Source: a virus
IMG/VR virus record: IMGVR_UViG_3300046542_000300
Location: 1-27,972 of that record
Reading direction: 5' to 3' (one strand)
DNA: 27,972 nt
The notes below the pieces were generated by a model. It worked only from the letters and a program-made list of their open reading frames with translations. It had not been told where the DNA came from and did no database searches. This document shows, one piece after another, positions 3,148-10,019 of this stretch. The translations under genes were made by a program, and so were the position numbers. How positions within the stretch are numbered: the stretch's first letter is position 1; every line of letters starts with the position of its first letter.

Positions 3148-3813
3148 TTAATCGAAAGTATCTTCTGGCCATTGAGCCTTTACTACCTTTCCGATAACCC
3201 GGCAATTCTCATTGCATGGGATGCTCTGATAGCGCGGGTTTGGGTTTAAAGGTTCTAGCCAAGGCTGGCCGTCCTCCCAAACAAAGCGTTTAAATGTTAC
3301 TTCTGAGTCGTTGTGTATTCCCGCCACGCAAAAGTCACCTGGCTCTACGTCTTCAGCAGGATCTACCAAAATCAGCATGCCCTCAGGGAAGCTCGGGCGA
3401 GTTCCCGGTGGAGCAGTCATAGAATGACCGCTAACCTCTAGCCAGAACGCATCTGGTCCTGCCTTACTAGTTGTCGCTATCCACTGCTGAGCATCTCGCT
3501 CCGTATATGTGCCTACATCTGTAAACTGCCCCGCCTGCACGGTGGTAAACAATGGGTATTCATACTGCTGTTTAACTGGAGGAAGAGTTAAGTCCTCAGA
3601 AACTGTAAAAGTTCCATCAGGATTAAGTGATGCGCCGTTTATACCCAGTATTTGAAAGATAGCACCAACCTCTGCGAGGGATGGATTTCTTCGGCCGTTA
3701 AGCCAATGCCCCATGGCGCCCTGTGTCACCCCCATTTTTTCAGAGAGCTCCGCTTGGGTCATGCCAAGTGCATTCAGTCTGGTTTTCGCCAGTTCGTTCC
3801 AGTTCTTTTTCAT
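3148..3813 (-). CDS. cI: CI-like phage repressor with S24 peptidase domain
   Basis: 221 aa. Residues 1-60 form an XRE-type helix-turn-helix ([21 protein letters not shown]) that binds operators. The C-terminal half is a LexA/UmuD-type autopeptidase domain: a candidate Ala94-Gly95 cleavage site (TTVQAGQF), nucleophile Ser131 in the SGHSMTAP motif, and general-base Lys175 (VTFKRF). By family knowledge, RecA filaments formed after DNA damage trigger self-cleavage and induction. The gene is divergent from the Cro-like gene, with candidate operators on both sides. Length and domain order are those of lambdoid and P22 C2-type repressors. Start ATG 3813-3811 is the first in frame after the operator region. 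Confidence 0.9.
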
Positions 3814-3824
3814 GGTTCAAATAA

Positions 3825-3894
3825 TACACCTTGTGTAGTTTTGCTCAATGCACAATATGTACAGTTTGTTTGATTATGTAAACTACATATTGTA
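3825..3894. promoter_or_regulatory. right operator/promoter region (OR, PR/PRM)
   Basis: Three motif copies are seen: TACAcctTGTG (3825-3835), CACAataTGTA (3851-3861) and TACAtatTGTA (3884-3894), spaced 26 and 33 bp. They lie between the divergent repressor and Cro-like genes. The first copy is also the centre of a TACAC-ctt-GTGTA palindrome. A possible rightward promoter (TTGATT, 17 bp, TACATT) overlaps the last copy. The layout matches a three-site OR. Which protein prefers which site cannot be read from the sequence. Confidence 0.65.
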
Positions 3895-3922
3895 CATTTA
3901 GTTTATCCATGAGGAGAACAGA

Positions 3923-4171
3923 ATGAATAATCTGAAAGCACTAAGACGATCTCTAAGAATGACTCAAAAGTCATTAGCGGAGGAGATTGGTCAAACTATT
4001 AGCTCTATTGGTCATTACGAATCAGGAAGAAGACAGCCTGACATCAAGACATGCCACCAACTTGTGGTTGCGCTCAGTAAGAACGGAGAAAGAGTATCAA
4101 TCGAAGATATCTTTCCAGGTCCAAATGCAACCGGTAATTTCGTAAGCGTAACCAGCAGCGGGCAGGGGTAA
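3923..4171 (+). CDS. cro: Cro-like HTH regulator
   Basis: 82 aa. It starts at ATG 3923 behind a strong GAGGAGA ribosome site. Residues 5-55 are an XRE-type helix-turn-helix (MTQKSLAEEIGQTISSIGHY followed by ESGRRQPD), and the last 20 residues are a Gly/Ser-rich tail. It is the first gene rightward of the divergent operator region, the position of Cro, which blocks the lysogeny promoters. No CII-like gene follows; the replication gene starts six bases after the stop. It could instead be a second repressor, but Cro is the simplest reading. Confidence 0.75.
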   Translation: MNNLKALRRSLRMTQKSLAEEIGQTISSIGHYESGRRQPDIKTCHQLVVALSKNGERVSIEDIFPGPNATGNFVSVTSSGQG

Positions 4172-4176
4172 TTATT

Positions 4177-5136
4177 TTGGCTCGAATCAGAACCATAAAG
4201 CCTGAGTTCTTCCTGCATGATGAGTTGTTCGAACTGGAACAGGAAACTGGCTTGCCAGTTCGTTTGGCTTTCATTGGGCTATGGACTCAGTGTGACAGAG
4301 AAGGGCGATTCAAATGGCGTCCTTTACGCCTTAAGGCCGCGATACTTCCTTATGATTCCGTTGATATGTCACGCGTACTTCACGCGTTAAACACGCGTGG
4401 TTTTCTCGTTAAATACGCGAATGAAACGGGTGAATATGGCGTGATTCCTTCGTTCAAAAACCACCAGGTAATTAACAATAAGGAGTCAAAATCTGATCTT
4501 CCGGCTGTTTCAGACTGTGAAATTGTTAAATCTAGTAATGGCGCGGCCTCTGACGCGACTGTCACGCGTGGCGAACGCGACGACCACGCGAACCAAGGGG
4601 AAAGGAAGGAAGGGAAGGGAAAGGAAAGGAAGGAACTAAACACTTTGTCCGATTCGAATCGGACTGGCGACGATGCTTTTTCAGAACCAGAAAATATGCC
4701 TGCGCAGGTTGAGTGTGAGGGCCCGGAAGAAGCCGATGATGGAGGTGATAAGTCAGATCCAGTCGATACGGTTTTCGAAGATATTTTCTGGATTGCAGGT
4801 TTACGCAAAGACGCGAAGGTTAAATCCCGTTCAGCATTTCGGGCTAAATACCGGGAATGGAAAAAACTTAAGCACGGTACACCTGAAGACTTCGCATCGA
4901 TTCTGGCTGCGGATATCCGCCGGCGGGTGCAGGCTAGCGAGCTGGGAGTGGATAAGCTTTTGCCCACTTCGTACCTCAACGGCGAACGCTGGAACGATGA
5001 ACGCTCAACTCCGGCTTTACCCAGTTCTCAGCCTCCGGGTTCTTCATGGTGCACACCATCAACCGACGGCTCAGCCGAGATATTTATCAATCCAGCCGCG
5101 CTTGCTCGTGCGCATAACGGTGGATATCGCTCATGA
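4177..5136 (+). CDS. phage replication initiator-like protein (O-like)
   Basis: 319 aa. The start is a TTG codon at 4177 (MARIRTIKPEFFLHDELFEL) with AGGGG about nine bases upstream. The N-terminal 110 residues resemble the winged-helix domain of phage replication proteins that begin with ARIRTIKPEF. A low-complexity charged linker follows (residues 125-195). The C-terminal domain (EDIFWIAGLRKDAKVKSRSA, ending YLNGERWNDE) is shared with many phage replisome organisers. By position, between Cro and a helicase, it plays the lambda O role of marking the origin and loading helicase. Phased repeats within its own gene (4371-4591) support that. The stop overlaps the next start (ATGA). Confidence 0.75.
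   Translation: MARIRTIKPEFFLHDELFELEQETGLPVRLAFIGLWTQCDREGRFKWRPLRLKAAILPYDSVDMSRVLHALNTRGFLVKYANETGEYGVIPSFKNHQVINNKESKSDLPAVSDCEIVKSSNGAASDATVTRGERDDHANQGERKEGKGKERKELNTLSDSNRTGDDAFSEPENMPAQVECEGPEEADDGGDKSDPVDTVFEDIFWIAGLRKDAKVKSRSAFRAKYREWKKLKHGTPEDFASILAADIRRRVQASELGVDKLLPTSYLNGERWNDERSTPALPSSQPPGSSWCTPSTDGSAEIFINPAALARAHNGGYRS
4371..4635. other. candidate replication origin: 11-bp-phased ACGCG iterons plus polypurine tract
   Basis: ACGCGT occurs at 4371, 4382 and 4393, with ACGCGA at 4415, all on an 11-bp grid (a weak copy at 4404). A second cluster has ACGCGA/T at 4553, 4564, 4575 and 4586, again exactly 11 bp apart. Immediately after it, 4595-4635 is an unbroken run of 41 purines on the plus strand. 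An AT-rich segment lies between the clusters. The 11-bp step is not a multiple of three, so the repeats fall in different codon frames and are not explained by a repeated peptide. Lambdoid origins are typically iterons inside the initiator gene next to an asymmetric tract, so an origin is the natural reading. Confidence 0.65.
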
Positions 5137-5240
5137 AATCATTCCTCAAACGTTTGCTAATGGCCGGATATAACAACGGCATTTTGCGAGGGGAATTCGT
5201 GACGTGGTGTTTTCAGAAATTTGATTTACGGAGTTCATAA
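5133..5240 (+). CDS. small ORF, 35 aa, coupled between initiator and helicase
   Basis: Not recognised. ATG 5133 overlaps the initiator stop (ATGA), and its own TAA overlaps the helicase start (TAATG), so it fills the gap exactly in a third frame. The peptide starts MKSFLKRLLMAGYNNGILRG and ends DLRSS; it is basic and amphipathic. The two overlaps are strong evidence for translation, at least as a coupling device. Confidence 0.6.
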   Translation: MKSFLKRLLMAGYNNGILRGEFVTWCFQKFDLRSS

Positions 5241-7114
5241 TGACCCCATCAGTGCTATCGGAAAAACTCTGGGATAACGCAGAGCGAGTGGCGAAATTTC
5301 TTTTGCCAAAAGGACATCAGGAAAGCCATGAGTGGTGTGTTGGGAGCATCAATGGTGAGGCGGGTAAAAGTCTCAAGATTAACCTGACAGGCAAAAAGGT
5401 CTGGTCTGATTTTGCCAGTGGTGAGAGTGGAGACCTGCTGGATTTATGGGTACTGGTGCGTAACTGCCAGTTGCATGATGCTATGCGCGAGGCGAAAGAG
5501 TTTTTGGGTCTCAAAGACGACGATCATCATTTTCAGGCGAAGAAAAAAGACTTTTCCCGTCCTACGAAAAAGGGCGTCAAAAAGGCGAATCAGTGCTACG
5601 AGTATCTGAGTACGAGAGGGATTACTCGCGAGACCGCTGATATGTTTCGTGTATCTGATGCCGTTGTATGGTTGCACGATGAGAGCAGGGAGGTTCCCGC
5701 GGTTGCTTACCCGTATATTCGCAATGGCGATTTGTTGCAGGTGAAGCGCATTGGCACTGAACGTCCTAATGGCAAAAAGCTGATCATGGCAGAAGCTGAT
5801 TGCGAGCCCTGCCTGTTCGGCTGGCAAGCTCTTAAACCGAAGGATCGCCTGGTGGTGCTGTGCGAGGGCGAAATTGATTGTATGACGTACACCCAGTACG
5901 GACTACCAGCGCTTTCAGTGCCGTTTGGCGGCGGAAAGGGGGCGAAGCAGCAGTGGATTGAGTACGAATATCACAACCTGGACCGCTTCGATGAAATCTG
6001 GCTCAGCCTGGATAACGACGACGTGGGGCGGGAGGCTGCGAAAGAAATCGCCCGTCGTTTGGGTGAGCATCGTTGCCGCATGGTTGAGTTACCACACAAA
6101 GATATCAACGAATGCCTGCTGGCTGGAATGGATACCAACGATGTTCTTGAGTATCTGGAGCGGGCTAAGTTTTTTGATCCTGACGAACTTTGCTCTGCCG
6201 GCGATTTGCTGCAAGAGACCATTGAAGCCTTTGAGCACCGGGATGTAGGACTGTTCAGTAGTCCATGGAAATCGCTGAATCATAATTTCAAATTCCGTGC
6301 TGGAGAACTAACGCTGGTCAATGGGGTGAACGGTCACGGCAAAACTGAACTGGTTGGCCATATTGCGGTGGAAGCCATGAATCAGGGGGTAAGAACTTGC
6401 ATAGCATCACTTGAACTGAAGCCCGGAAAGATGCTTGCACGTCTGACCCGGCAAACCATCTGCACAGCTTCGCCAGCCCATGCTGAAATCGTTATGACAA
6501 ATGACTGGTTTTCTGATCGCCTCTGGGTTTTCAAATTGACCGGAACGGCGAAAGCCGGGCGCTTGCTGGAAATATTCGCTTATGCTCGACGTCGCTACGG
6601 GATCGAGCTGTTTGTTATCGATAACCTGGCAAAGTGTGGACTCGACGAGGAGGATTTCACCGGGCAGAAGAATTTCATTGATACCTTGTGCGACTTCAAA
6701 AACGAACATAACTGCCATGTGCTTCTCGTTACTCATGCCCGGAAAACCAACAACGAGGCTGCTCCCACAGGGAAGATGGACGTGAAAGGGACGGGAGCGC
6801 TTACAGACATGCCGGATAATGTAATGTCTGTATGGCGCAATATTTCTCGCGAGCTGGCTCAAAGAAAGGCCGATCAGAGCGGATATGATAGCCTGGACAA
6901 AGACCAGCAAACCTCGCTTCTGCTGCCTTCTTCGATGATCCGTCTGCTGAAGCAGCGAGAAGGTGAAGGCTGGATTGGGGATATTGGCGCAAGCTTCGAC
7001 TCGCGCTCCCACCAGTTCCTTGAAGGCAAAAACACACCATTTAACTACCTGGCCGGAAAACTTCAGAGCGAAGTCGATCTGGAATGGGAAGCAAATAACG
7101 TAACGAGGGTATAG
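5240..7114 (+). CDS. primase-helicase with TOPRIM and DnaB/gp4-type helicase domains
   Basis: 624 aa. Residues 1-100 look like a CHC2-type primase N-terminus that has kept the strand pattern (KINLTGKKVWSDFASGESGD) but not the four zinc ligands. Residues 200-310 are a TOPRIM domain with Glu209 (LCEGEID) and the LSLDNDD motif around Asp258-Asp260. Residues 345-600 are a RecA-type DnaB-family helicase core with Walker A GVNGHGKT (362-369), a Walker B-like LFVIDN, and the LLVTHARK segment. By family it unwinds DNA at the phage fork and may make primers; absence of the zinc ligands makes template-directed priming uncertain. It follows the initiator gene in the same operon. Confidence 0.85.
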   Translation: MTPSVLSEKLWDNAERVAKFLLPKGHQESHEWCVGSINGEAGKSLKINLTGKKVWSDFASGESGDLLDLWVLVRNCQLHDAMREAKEFLGLKDDDHHFQAKKKDFSRPTKKGVKKANQCYEYLSTRGITRETADMFRVSDAVVWLHDESREVPAVAYPYIRNGDLLQVKRIGTERPNGKKLIMAEADCEPCLFGWQALKPKDRLVVLCEGEIDCMTYTQYGLPALSVPFGGGKGAKQQWIEYEYHNLDRFDEIWLSLDNDDVGREAAKEIARRLGEHRCRMVELPHKDINECLLAGMDTNDVLEYLERAKFFDPDELCSAGDLLQETIEAFEHRDVGLFSSPWKSLNHNFKFRAGELTLVNGVNGHGKTELVGHIAVEAMNQGVRTCIASLELKPGKMLARLTRQTICTASPAHAEIVMTNDWFSDRLWVFKLTGTAKAGRLLEIFAYARRRYGIELFVIDNLAKCGLDEEDFTGQKNFIDTLCDFKNEHNCHVLLVTHARKTNNEAAPTGKMDVKGTGALTDMPDNVMSVWRNISRELAQRKADQSGYDSLDKDQQTSLLLPSSMIRLLKQREGEGWIGDIGASFDSRSHQFLEGKNTPFNYLAGKLQSEVDLEWEANNVTRV

Positions 7115-7806: not shown

Positions 7807-7831
7807 GTAAGGGGAAGCTGACTCCTCTTAC
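7807..7831. terminator. hairpin between convergent Q and RelA/SpoT genes (weak terminator)
   Basis: GTAAGGGGA pairs with TCCTCTTAC (9 bp, one G-T) around a seven-base loop. It lies between Q and the stop of the minus-strand cassette. Neither side has a long T tract, so it may be only a weak bidirectional terminator or mRNA 3' end. Confidence 0.4.
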
Positions 7832-8823
7832 CGTCTTGAGCTTACACCTAAATCACTAAAGGCCATTTCCGCTTCTGGAATATATCCAGGGAGAGGCCAC
7901 TTTGACATAATGCTTTCTAAGGGGGAGGTTTTTATAAGGTAATAGATGAATAAGATTCCAGGTTGGGAAAATAGTGTTTTTGTATGGGCTCTTGCTTGTA
8001 TTTTTTTTGCAATAAATTTTTTTGCATAGATAAATTCTCTTATTTCAGTTTCGATATTTTCAGTTAAAAATTCTCTATACGTATCCAGTATTAAAAAGTT
8101 AGTTGATTCATCGTAATGAATAAATCCAGAACCAACGTAATCATTATAGATGTCAATGAGGTGTTTATTTAATTTATTGCGCTCAATATTTGTTTCATAC
8201 AAAAGTTTCATTGTGGAGCAAAATAAATCGTCAGTGGTCTCCATAAGGGCCATGCTTCGTGCTATATGCCTTTCTGCCGATTTTGGAACAATTCCAACCG
8301 GTTTATATATGCTATCATGTACTAACTCCGCATATGCATGTTGCAGGAGAGTCCTAACTTGGACTTCACAGCAAATTGAAGTTGGTATATGTATTCCATC
8401 AATTTCCACATCATTTGATGGTCTTATTTCATAATGCTTAGACTGATAATCAAATATTTTAGGATTTAAATCTATTTCATCAAGATAGTTTTTGGAAACA
8501 ACTGAATCGAATGCTTCAATTGATTCAATTGTTTCACAAATTGTAGTAATATCTTCCGATAATAAGACAACAAATCGAGTGCCTACCAAATCAGTCATTT
8601 GATTGATAGGGTCATCATATCCTTTTTTTGCTACCTTTCCTAAAGCTGAACTGGTTTCTTTGACCCTTGGTACTACAGGTATTTTTATGAAGGTCTTGAA
8701 CGATTCAAGACCTAGTTTTTCTTGCAAGAGTTTAGAGATGGTTTCAGATACATATTTCCCCCATGAAGCGAAAGCATCATGGTTATCAGTTAGGTATCGG
8801 TGAAACTCATCATAGGCACTCAT
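7828..8823 (-). CDS. RelA/SpoT-type nucleotidyltransferase (candidate defence effector)
   Basis: 331 aa. Residues 45-170 carry the synthetase motifs of the RelA/SpoT family: the PRVKETSSALGKVAKK segment (Arg53, Lys55, Lys63), the metal-binding Asp78 in DLVGTRFV, the Tyr126-x-Ser128-x-His130 loop, and Glu153 in EVQVRTLLQHAYAELVHD. No HD hydrolase domain precedes it. The C-terminal 160 residues are helical and unassigned. It should transfer pyrophosphate from ATP to a nucleotide, or to tRNA as in toxic small alarmone synthetases. ATG overlaps the upstream stop (ATGA), so it is coupled to the NdpA-like gene. It is AT-rich compared with its neighbours and opposite in strand, both signs of a moron. 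Alternative: a housekeeping-type alarmone synthetase. Confidence 0.8.
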   Translation of the reverse strand: MSAYDEFHRYLTDNHDAFASWGKYVSETISKLLQEKLGLESFKTFIKIPVVPRVKETSSALGKVAKKGYDDPINQMTDLVGTRFVVLLSEDITTICETIESIEAFDSVVSKNYLDEIDLNPKIFDYQSKHYEIRPSNDVEIDGIHIPTSICCEVQVRTLLQHAYAELVHDSIYKPVGIVPKSAERHIARSMALMETTDDLFCSTMKLLYETNIERNKLNKHLIDIYNDYVGSGFIHYDESTNFLILDTYREFLTENIETEIREFIYAKKFIAKKIQARAHTKTLFSQPGILFIYYLIKTSPLESIMSKWPLPGYIPEAEMAFSDLGVSSRR

Positions 8824-9905
8824 AACTGACTCGTTAGCTTACCATTAATTTTAAGGATGGTTGTATTATGATCCTCATTTGGTAATATTTCAACTAAGTC
8901 CTTAATTTTGTCGGGCGGTATAGACATCCAAATGTCATTGGAAAAAACTAATCTGCTTCGACGTTTTAACTTCGATGCAATGTAATCAATGTCTTTCAAA
9001 AAAGAATTTAGCGGAAGATGATTTTCAGTTGCGATTTTTTTGTAATCTTCTTTAATTTCATCGGGAAAATGCTCTGTTGCAAATGAATTTATATTAACAG
9101 TGGCTTTCTTAGACCTTAATTCTGATCTTAAAGCCTCATGAAGATCAAGTTTTTGTTCTTCAGGTATTTTTGCATCATTTATAAATTTACGAGTGGTTTC
9201 ATAAAAATCTTGTGTTAGTTTTTTAGATGATGAATTTATATCCATCCCTAAAAATGTATTATAGAAGTATGAAGCGGCCTTGCTTGTATCAGTTGCTGTC
9301 ATCAAATGGTCAAATAAGAATGCCCGAAACGCCGATGAGGGATAATTTCCTGATTCATCTACCTCATTTATTTGTTGCTCAACAATAAAACCAACTTTAT
9401 AAAATCGTTGTGATGGTGTTAATAAAAGTTCATTCAGAAAATGCATTGTTAATTGTTCGTCATTTTCATGAGTACTAAATCCTGTTTGAGTTTCAGCCTT
9501 AATTACAGCGTAAAATGGCTTTTGCTCGTCGCCAACATCTCCAGAGACAATAATAAGAATCCCACCAGGAGCACCTACATTAAATTGTGCTTCAGTAAGT
9601 TTATTTGCTAAACGGTGACTGGATTTAATGAAAATATCTTCACTATTATGCATCGTTGATGCTGCAAGATTAAGAAAGCTGTCTGCTACACCATCTCTGA
9701 TGGACATCTCAATTCCATGTGAGCGTGCGGCTAAGGCCTCGGTAATCCTAAGTTGTAGGGCATCAATTGCTTCACCTGAGAAGTTAAGAATTTTTTGACT
9801 CAATTTCGCTGGGATAATCGTTTTTGACGCTGAACGAGGAAATATTCTGTGTGCGATCACTCTTTCAATGCATAAACCTTCAAAAGAAAAGTCGATTCCC
9901 GCCAT
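8820..9905 (-). CDS. nucleoid-associated protein, NdpA/YejK (37 kDa) family
   Basis: 361 aa. I chose ATG 9905-9903 (MAGIDFSFEG) because AAGAGGA lies eight bases upstream and a promoter is visible behind it; the frame continues 34 codons further up without a ribosome site. Family features: the central GGILIIVSGDVGDEQKPFYA strand region, the YFYNTFLGMD motif in the middle, and a C-terminal strand pair ending TTILKINGKL. The family (E. coli YejK) binds the nucleoid, but its biochemical role is not known. Here it is the first gene of a two-gene cassette with a RelA/SpoT-type enzyme. It could be the sensor or the partner that neutralises that enzyme. AT-rich codon use contrasts with the phage genes on both sides. 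Confidence 0.75.
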   Translation of the reverse strand: MAGIDFSFEGLCIERVIAHRIFPRSASKTIIPAKLSQKILNFSGEAIDALQLRITEALAARSHGIEMSIRDGVADSFLNLAASTMHNSEDIFIKSSHRLANKLTEAQFNVGAPGGILIIVSGDVGDEQKPFYAVIKAETQTGFSTHENDEQLTMHFLNELLLTPSQRFYKVGFIVEQQINEVDESGNYPSSAFRAFLFDHLMTATDTSKAASYFYNTFLGMDINSSSKKLTQDFYETTRKFINDAKIPEEQKLDLHEALRSELRSKKATVNINSFATEHFPDEIKEDYKKIATENHLPLNSFLKDIDYIASKLKRRSRLVFSNDIWMSIPPDKIKDLVEILPNEDHNTTILKINGKLTSQL

Positions 9906-9924
9906 TCCGTGTGTCCTCTTAGTT

Positions 9925-9953
9925 GTTATATAGCGAGAATACGAAAAAGCTAA
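9925..9953 (-). promoter_or_regulatory. candidate promoter of the minus-strand cassette
   Basis: Read leftward: TTAGCT (9953-9948), a 17-base spacer, and TATAAC (9930-9925), about 20 bases before the NdpA-like start. The -10 matches five of six consensus positions; the -35 is weak. It would let the cassette be expressed independently of the phage early and late promoters, for example in a lysogen. Confidence 0.5.
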
Positions 9954-10019
9954 CGCGTACGCAAAAGATATCGTAATGTGATAAGAGTCGTCACAAAGAC
10001 ACAGCACTTATCAAATAGG

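What the first reader, a model, noticed from the sequence alone, without database searches (positions are those of the whole stretch)
4371..4635. 11-bp-phased ACGCG iterons and a 41-nt purine tract inside the initiator gene
Copies at 4371, 4382, 4393, (4404 weak), 4415 and at 4553, 4564, 4575, 4586 are each exactly one helical turn apart. The spacing is out of codon phase, so protein coding does not explain it. An uninterrupted purine run (4595-4635) follows the second cluster at once. This matches the logic of the lambda origin but with a different, shorter iteron and two clusters.
Basis: partly seen in the sequence, partly recalled or inferred. Interest (0 to 1): 0.7.

Follow-up and report, generated by a model that had tools for sequence, protein, structure and literature searches.

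The report
Phage replication origin inside initiator gene
The repeats are almost certainly the binding sites of the phage's own replication-starting protein, written twice inside that protein's gene, once in the codons for the very helix predicted to read them, and the layout recurs in many phages, in some with different repeat sequences.

Summary
ACGCG copies lie at 4371, 4382, 4393, (4404 weak), 4415 and at 4553, 4564, 4575, 4586; a 41-nt purine run follows at 4595-4635. Synonymous shuffles never reproduced the phasing in 20,000 trials. All 65 non-identical genes of the window's initiator clade, fetched with peptide patterns outside the repeats, carry 11-bp-phased ACGCG; nearly all have both clusters and a purine tract. 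Third codon positions under cluster 1 are frozen, while neighbouring codons vary.

The predicted fold is a winged-helix N-domain, a disordered linker and a helical C-domain. Cluster 1 encodes the predicted recognition helix and first wing strand. Cluster 2 and the tract encode the linker.

Other N-domains carry other 11-bp iterons (ACTCAnTGAGT; AAGGGGCTT), again in two clusters. The C-domain instead tracks a TOPRIM/DnaB-like helicase, whatever the N-domain. An inverted repeat follows the tract.

Best explanation: a lambda-type intragenic origin. The N-domain binds the iterons, the purine tract is opened, and the C-domain delivers the helicase. It is not a lambda O family member: the N-domain has no Pfam match, the iterons are one turn apart, the tract is 49% G, and no loader gene was identified next to it. 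Binding and origin activity are untested.

The parts
4177..5136 (+). Initiator gene, 319 aa, TTG start: winged-helix N-domain, disordered linker, helical C-domain
   Evidence: ORF; PHROG 16167/1408 'replication initiation protein'; no Pfam match even at E<=10; AF2 model
4366..4419 (+). Codons 64-81: predicted recognition helix (64-74) and first wing strand (78-81); same DNA as iteron cluster 1
   Evidence: Secondary structure and pLDDT about 95 in AF2 model m814a9fc1390c
4371..4419 (+). Iteron cluster 1: ACGCG at 4371, 4382, 4393, (4404 weak), 4415
   Evidence: conserved at the homologous gene position in the clade; frozen third codon positions
4553..4590 (+). Iteron cluster 2: ACGCG at 4553, 4564, 4575, 4586, in the disordered linker
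4595..4635 (+). 41-nt pure purine tract (21 A, 20 G), encodes GERKEGKGKERKE; proposed opening/helicase-entry region
   Evidence: Gly 211/215 and Arg 67/70 all-purine codons in family tracts versus 409/880 and 244/1201 elsewhere in the genes; neither strand folds
4647..4664 (.). 18-bp perfect inverted repeat GTCCGATTCGAATCGGAC, start of the C-module
   Evidence: inverted repeats of at least 7 bp in 26% of downstream regions versus 4.9% of control windows
4759..4932 (+). Helical C-domain core (residues 195-252), inferred helicase-recruiting part
   Evidence: AF2; shared with Sf101 O protein and other N-domain types, with the same downstream helicase
5240..7114 (+). TOPRIM plus DnaB-like primase/helicase, inferred partner
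   Evidence: Pfam Toprim_2, AAA_25, PHROG 239
3923..4171 (+). Cro-like HTH regulator immediately upstream, same direction
   Evidence: Pfam HTH_3
3148..3813 (-). CI-like repressor (HTH plus S24 peptidase), divergent
   Evidence: Pfam, PHROG 4

Best explanation
This is the phage's theta-type replication origin, built into its initiator gene. Inferred: the winged-helix N-domain of the initiator binds the roughly 11-bp ACGCGT iterons, one per helical turn, and so stacks along one face of the DNA at two arrays. Array 2 abuts a 41-nt polypurine tract which, once opened (helped by transcription from the upstream early promoter and possibly by an R-loop on the purine strand), offers structure-free single strands. 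The C-domain, joined by the flexible linker that this same DNA encodes, then delivers the adjacent TOPRIM/DnaB-like primase-helicase. Array 1, inside the codons for the recognition helix and wing, is proposed to be a second binding array for cooperative looping, titration or autoregulation. Shown here by computation: the arrays, their selection at DNA level, their co-variation with the N-domain, the predicted domain layout, and the coupling of the C-domain to the helicase. Not shown: binding, strand opening, helicase contact, origin activity.
For: (1) Never reached in synonymous shuffles. (2) 65/65 non-identical clade genes, fetched with patterns outside the iterons (TIKPEFF, HQVINN), have phased ACGCG and nearly all have both clusters plus a purine tract; identical 6-mers at lag 11/22/33/44 = 521/437/101/40 versus about 5 at most other lags. 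(3) Frozen codons under cluster 1: Ser TCA 46/46, Arg CGC 49/49, Ala GCG 48/48, Leu TTR 49/49, Thr ACG 44/44, Arg CGT 47/47, while Gly codons beside them vary; repeated in the L006 group (Leu CTC 17/17, Ser TCA 18/18, Val GTG 18/18). (4) Different N-domains have different 11-bp iterons; iteron type follows the N-domain tree (17 changes versus 48.6 shuffled; window clade of 51 rows all ACGCG, support 97/97). (5) Same C-domain on other N-domains, with other iterons but the same helicase at 67-87% identity; Sf101 has this C-domain with a lambda O N-domain and lambda-type iterons. (6) Winged-helix N-domain, disordered linker. (7) Order iterons, purine tract, inverted repeat as in lambda and Sf101.
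Against: No binding or replication data exist for any member, so far as the library shows. The tract is half G, whereas lambda's opening region is AT-rich, so how it opens is unexplained. The two clusters could serve different purposes and only one may be needed. GC skew turns positive near 4 kb, but gene direction changes there too, so skew is uninformative. Some sister genes keep only two recognisable copies (L055, L058 group).
Confidence: 0.85

Rival explanations
1. The arrays are operators: the initiator binds them to repress its own transcription or elongation, and the real origin is elsewhere.
For: Cluster 1 lies 195 nt into the gene and lacks a purine tract; initiators often autoregulate (general knowledge). 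The Cro-like gene and initiator are co-directional.
Against: Cluster 2 is followed by the purine tract in nearly all genes, which an operator does not need. C-domain/helicase coupling and the lambda and Sf101 parallels fit an origin. No comparable array was found outside the gene in the window. Autoregulation can coexist with origin function.
Confidence: 0.07
2. Recombination linkers: the repeats, purine tract and inverted repeat are kept because they promote exchange of initiator modules.
For: Module junctions fall at the 3' end of the tract: window, Sf101, L046 and L047 share near-identical DNA only from AACACT(A/T)TGTCCGA on.
Against: Iterons differ between N-domains, so they cannot be shared homology for exchange. 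Helical phasing and co-variation with the N-domain are unexplained. Junction placement is expected anyway if N-domain plus iterons is the functional unit.
Confidence: 0.03
3. Coding or RNA-level explanation: the peptides, or mRNA features (rare AGG/GGA codons, internal ribosome site ahead of an ATG/TTG), are selected and not the DNA.
For: In the C-module family the hairpin is preceded in frame by ATG, TTG or GTG in 30 of 32 contexts, compatible with an internal start behind a purine-rich ribosome site.
Against: Copies lie in all three frames with frozen third positions. Across 143 family genes there is no general excess of in-frame starts after the tract. The 11-bp spacing survives complete change of sequence.
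Confidence: 0.04

Closest known systems
Phage lambda ori-lambda / O protein (and Stx-phage and Sf101-type O)
   Same: Iterons inside the middle of the initiator gene, in the interdomain linker; a purine-rich stretch on the coding strand 3' of them; N-domain binds DNA, C-domain serves the helicase; Sf101 shares this window's C-domain and hairpin (PMC7466680, PMC3349717).
   Different: Lambda: 18-bp iterons about two turns apart, one cluster, A-rich opening region, PF04492 N-domain, P loader. Here: one-turn ACGCGT iterons, two clusters (one in the recognition-helix codons), G/A tract at 49% G, unrelated N-domain sequence, TOPRIM-helicase next door.
RepA_N plasmid initiators (pSK41, pTZ2162) and PLE RepA
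   Same: Winged-helix N-terminal domain binding iterons with a swappable C-domain (PMC7145576); 4PT7 and 4RO3 appear among weak fold matches.
   Different: No Pfam RepA_N match at E<=10; fold matches not significant (best PDB E 0.05); iterons differ. Origin position inside the rep gene in pSK41 is recalled, not checked.
PHROG 16167 / 1408 'replication initiation protein' (VvAW1 gp33, Mx8 p19, JBD44 gp2)
   Same: Same protein family by profile or by tblastn; VvAW1 and Vibrio phage 1.131.O carry the ACGCGT arrays and purine tract.
   Different: Annotated from homology only; no description of origin or iterons found in the papers searched.
Vibrio chromosome 2 RctB 12-mers
   Same: Short direct repeats bound by an initiator (PMC5395669).
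   Different: RctB sites named there are 12-mers and 39-mers; relation of the proteins not tested here.

Membership tests
Lambda O family (PF04492) | Phage_rep_O N-terminal domain | tested here: not met
   No Pfam hit for the window protein; lambda O and Sf101 O hit at 5.7e-36 and 1.1e-37
Lambda O family (PF04492) | Iterons within the initiator gene | tested here: met
Lambda O family (PF04492) | About 18-bp iterons roughly two turns apart | tested here: not met
   11-bp spacing versus lambda annotation at 39034, 39054, 39078, 39101
Lambda O family (PF04492) | AT-rich opening region beside the iterons | tested here: not met
   Adjacent tract is 21 A and 20 G; lambda tract AAAAGAAAAAAGAAAAGA
Lambda O family (PF04492) | Separate helicase loader (P) downstream | tested here: not met
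   Next large gene is TOPRIM plus DnaB-like helicase; HK639 relative has a P-like loader
Sf101-type O C-domain | Homologous C-domain and matching TOPRIM helicase | tested here: met
   48% identity C-domain, 59% identity helicase
RepA_N (PF06970) | RepA_N profile match | tested here: not met
   No hit at E<=10
PHROG 16167 replication initiation proteins | Profile match over N-domain and linker | tested here: met
   E 1.3e-42, residues 1-227
Iteron-type origin (functional class) | Initiator binds the repeats | not testable with these tools
   Indirect only: co-variation of repeats with N-domain
Iteron-type origin (functional class) | Fragment drives replication | not testable with these tools
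   needs plasmid assay

The most novel reading that the evidence does not exclude
A widespread class of phage origins in which the initiator's binding sites are written twice into its own gene, once in the linker and once in the very codons of the recognition helix and wing that read them. The layout is held by phages with at least three different iteron sequences (ACGCGT, ACTCAnTGAGT, AAGGGGCTT), and the iteron-plus-N-domain cassette is swapped as a unit onto different helicase-recruiting C-domains.
Probability: 0.6. Interest if true: 0.75.

Novelty: new variant of a known kind. Interest (0 to 1): 0.62.

Why it matters
It gives precise, testable origin positions for a large group of temperate and environmental phages whose initiators are annotated at best as 'replication initiation protein' with no Pfam model. 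It extends the lambda principle to short one-turn iterons and a G/A tract, with at least three unrelated iteron sequences in the same layout. The recognition-helix array is a clean case of one stretch of DNA constrained both as a protein reader and as the site read. It yields a specificity code: a set of paired N-domains and iterons from which DNA recognition rules and orthogonal replicons could be derived.

Tried and rejected
Pfam and PDB sequence searches for the N-domain: nothing meaningful. PDB fold search: only generic winged helices, best E 0.05. E. coli genomes by distant blastn: no match. GC skew as origin evidence: confounded by gene direction. Considered and rejected: protein-level repeats (all three frames, frozen third positions); simple charged-linker coding as cause of the purine tract (Gly and Arg use all-purine codons in 278 of 285 cases); the terminator-like hits at 4380-4400 (a by-product of ACGCGT palindromes); a general internal translation start after the tract (no excess in 143 genes). 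Phase between the two clusters looks conserved (R 0.62 modulo 11, n=49), but the sequences are related and array length alone creates an 11-bp comb, so I do not rely on it. Papers: ten searches found lambda, Stx-phage and PLE work but nothing on these repeats; the library holds open-licence papers only.

Full report
OBSERVATION. The window is an IMG/VR virus record of 27,972 bp. The initiator gene is 4177-5136 (+), 319 aa. It is preceded by a Cro-like gene (3923-4171) and a divergent CI-like repressor (3148-3813), and followed by a TOPRIM/DnaB-like primase-helicase (5240-7114). ACGCG lies at 4371, 4382, 4393, 4415 (with a degenerate TCTCGT at 4404) and at 4553, 4564, 4575, 4586; the purine run is 4595-4635. 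In 20,000 shuffles of synonymous codons within the gene the observed 5 pairs at an 11-bp lag were never reached, and no 5-mer at any lag from 6 to 29 reached more than 3 in 3,000.

RELATIVES KEEP IT. An N-domain profile search of viral contigs, driven by the peptides TIKPEFF and HQVINN (neither in the repeats), found 435 relatives, of which the best 80 were fetched. All 65 non-identical genes of the window's clade, window included, have at least two ACGCG pairs 11 bp apart. Nearly all have them at gene nt 195/206/217(/239), or 189/200/211(/233) where the fetched match starts two codons later, and again near 345-445, with a purine tract following. Over 66 genes, identical 6-mers (purine-only words excluded) at lag 11, 22, 33, 44 number 521, 437, 101, 40 against roughly 5 at most other lags. 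Consensus: Y(C/G)ACGCGT(G/C), with a palindromic core. In a sister group of 63 non-redundant genes (L065 group) the same ACGCGT is spaced 10 or 11 bp (lag 10: 143, lag 11: 278, lag 21: 192). The rule is therefore one helical turn, not a fixed 11 bp.

SELECTION ACTS ON DNA. In the non-redundant set (62 genes at 90% identity), third positions under cluster 1 are frozen: Ser TCA 46/46, Arg CGC 49/49, Ala GCG 48/48, Leu TTG/TTA 49/49, Thr ACG 44/44, Arg CGT 47/47. The adjoining Gly codon uses all four forms. The counts are conditioned on at least two ACGCG in that stretch, which excludes few genes. An independent clade with another iteron repeats this: Leu CTC 17/17, Ser TCA 18/18, Val GTG 18/18, with free Leu codons nearby. 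In the purine tract, defined by amino acids and not by bases, Gly is GGA/GGG in 211 of 215 and Arg is AGA/AGG in 67 of 70, against 409/880 and 244/1201 in the rest of the genes (Fisher 3e-54 and 8e-40). So the tract is held as purine DNA, not only as a charged linker. Neither strand of it folds.

ITERONS FOLLOW THE N-DOMAIN. Genes with other N-domains lack ACGCG but have other repeats at the same spacing. The L006 group has ACTCAnTGAgT at gene nt 205, 216, 227 and again at about 324-456. The L080 group has TTCGnCGAA-like or ATCATTGA repeats, up to eight consecutive copies. L022-type genes have AAGGGGCTT at 186, 197 and 453, 464; there the same peptide (EGASKGL) appears in both the recognition helix and the linker, as expected if DNA repeats dictate it. 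On an N-domain tree of 156 rows the iteron class needs 17 changes (shuffled mean 48.6), and the smallest well-supported large clade holding the window is 51 rows, all ACGCG, support 97/97. The class labels were assigned by simple pattern counts and are coarse: 25 of the 156 rows fell in 'other', most of them genes with fewer or degenerate copies.

THE C-DOMAIN FOLLOWS THE HELICASE. The window's C-domain occurs on several other N-domain types, and in every enterobacterial case it is followed by the same TOPRIM helicase at 67-87% identity. Phage Sf101 has this C-domain (48%) and helicase (59%) but a lambda O N-domain (PF04492) and lambda-type 19-bp TGTCAC...GTGACA iterons. Conversely the N-domain family is found beside DnaB-like helicases (Vibrio 1.131.O, JBD44, Bordetella IFTN1), DnaC-like loaders (Mx8, IME307) and a lambda P-like loader (HK639). 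So there are two cassettes: N-domain plus iterons, and C-domain plus helicase.

STRUCTURE. AlphaFold2 on 61 aligned sequences gives a confident winged helix for residues 1-120 (pLDDT about 95), a disordered linker 122-190, and a helical C-domain 195-252 of moderate confidence. Cluster 1 (4371-4419) coincides with the predicted recognition helix 64-74 and wing strand 78-81. Cluster 2 and the purine tract encode the disordered linker. A second model (L023, less confident) again puts cluster 1 (codons 61-69) in the predicted recognition helix 60-73. Calling helix 64-74 the recognition helix rests on its position in the winged-helix order, not on a complex structure. Fold searches find phage replication proteins and replisome organizers and, in the PDB, only weak generic winged helices.

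INVERTED REPEAT. Just 3' of the tract lies GTCCGATTCGAATCGGAC (4647-4664). Across 136 non-redundant downstream regions, perfect inverted repeats of at least 7 bp occur in 26% against 4.9% of control windows from the same genes. In the L065 group several are made of further ACGCGT copies; leaving out every repeat that contains ACGCG or CGCGT leaves about 25 of 136. In Sf101 one stem pair has changed on both sides (GTCCGAA/TTCGGAC). Lambda has an imperfect inverted repeat in the same place (ATTCGTCAGAGAATTCTGGCGAAT, read by eye). Its role is unknown; a barrier to unwinding or a priming or loading structure are guesses.

MECHANISM. Shown by computation: the two arrays, their selection as DNA, co-variation with the N-domain, C-domain/helicase coupling, predicted fold. 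Inferred: N-domain binding, same-face stacking, opening at the purine tract aided by transcription (as transcription activates the lambda origin, PMC7466680), helicase delivery by the C-domain. Unknown: what cluster 1 adds. It is absent in part of the sister groups, so it is probably regulatory or reinforcing and not the core.

KNOWN OR NEW. The kind is known: intragenic iteron origins of lambda type (PMC3349717, PMC7466680). The variant is not described in the papers I could search: one-turn iterons, a second array in the recognition-helix codons, a G/A tract, several unrelated iteron sequences in one layout. The library is open-licence only, so older subscription literature on lambdoid origins could hold related remarks; that a 1979 study compared lambdoid origins and noted inverted repeats is recollection and unchecked.

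Noticed in passing
L173 (HK639) 3980-4032, L176 (yong1) 3982-4023, L178 (JBD44) 1203-1232, L175 (IFTN1) 3890-3917, L180 (IME307): Relatives of the N-domain with DnaB, DnaC or P-like partners carry CTGATTC(C) repeats spaced by multiples of 7 bp in the linker instead of 11-bp iterons; a further iteron class with another periodicity.
   Followed up: partly
L022-L028, L050, L052: A third N-domain type (MRDYGKVSP...) has two clusters of AAGGGGCTT iterons; the peptide EGASKGL or a close variant appears in both recognition helix and linker because the DNA repeat is the same.
   Followed up: yes
window 4645-4647 and the same site in L001, L006, L022, L046, L047, L177: The codon just before the hairpin is ATG, TTG or GTG in 30 of 32 contexts, the pattern of a start codon, behind a purine-rich stretch: possible internal start for a C-domain-only protein.
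   Followed up: partly
L005 5001-5459 (same contig as L094) and L048: Initiator frames are broken; in L005 the purine tract is 37 nt (others 41 or 50), so tract length change shifts the frame. Could be decay, sequencing error or slippage-based switching.
   Followed up: no
L174 (Mx8) p19, residues about 119-194 of the stretch read: The Mx8 initiator has a MUG113/T5orf172 domain right after the winged-helix domain, where other members have iterons; no phased repeats were found there.
   Followed up: no
window 7828-10007 (-): Low-GC (33-36%) stretch with two minus-strand genes of unknown function (PHROG 32462 and 1974) between the Q-like antiterminator and the methyltransferase gene: looks like cargo.
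   Followed up: no
L290, L296, L305, L324 just 3' of the purine tract: In the L065 group further ACGCGT copies lie beyond the tract and form inverted repeats, so the tract is flanked by iterons on both sides.
   Followed up: partly
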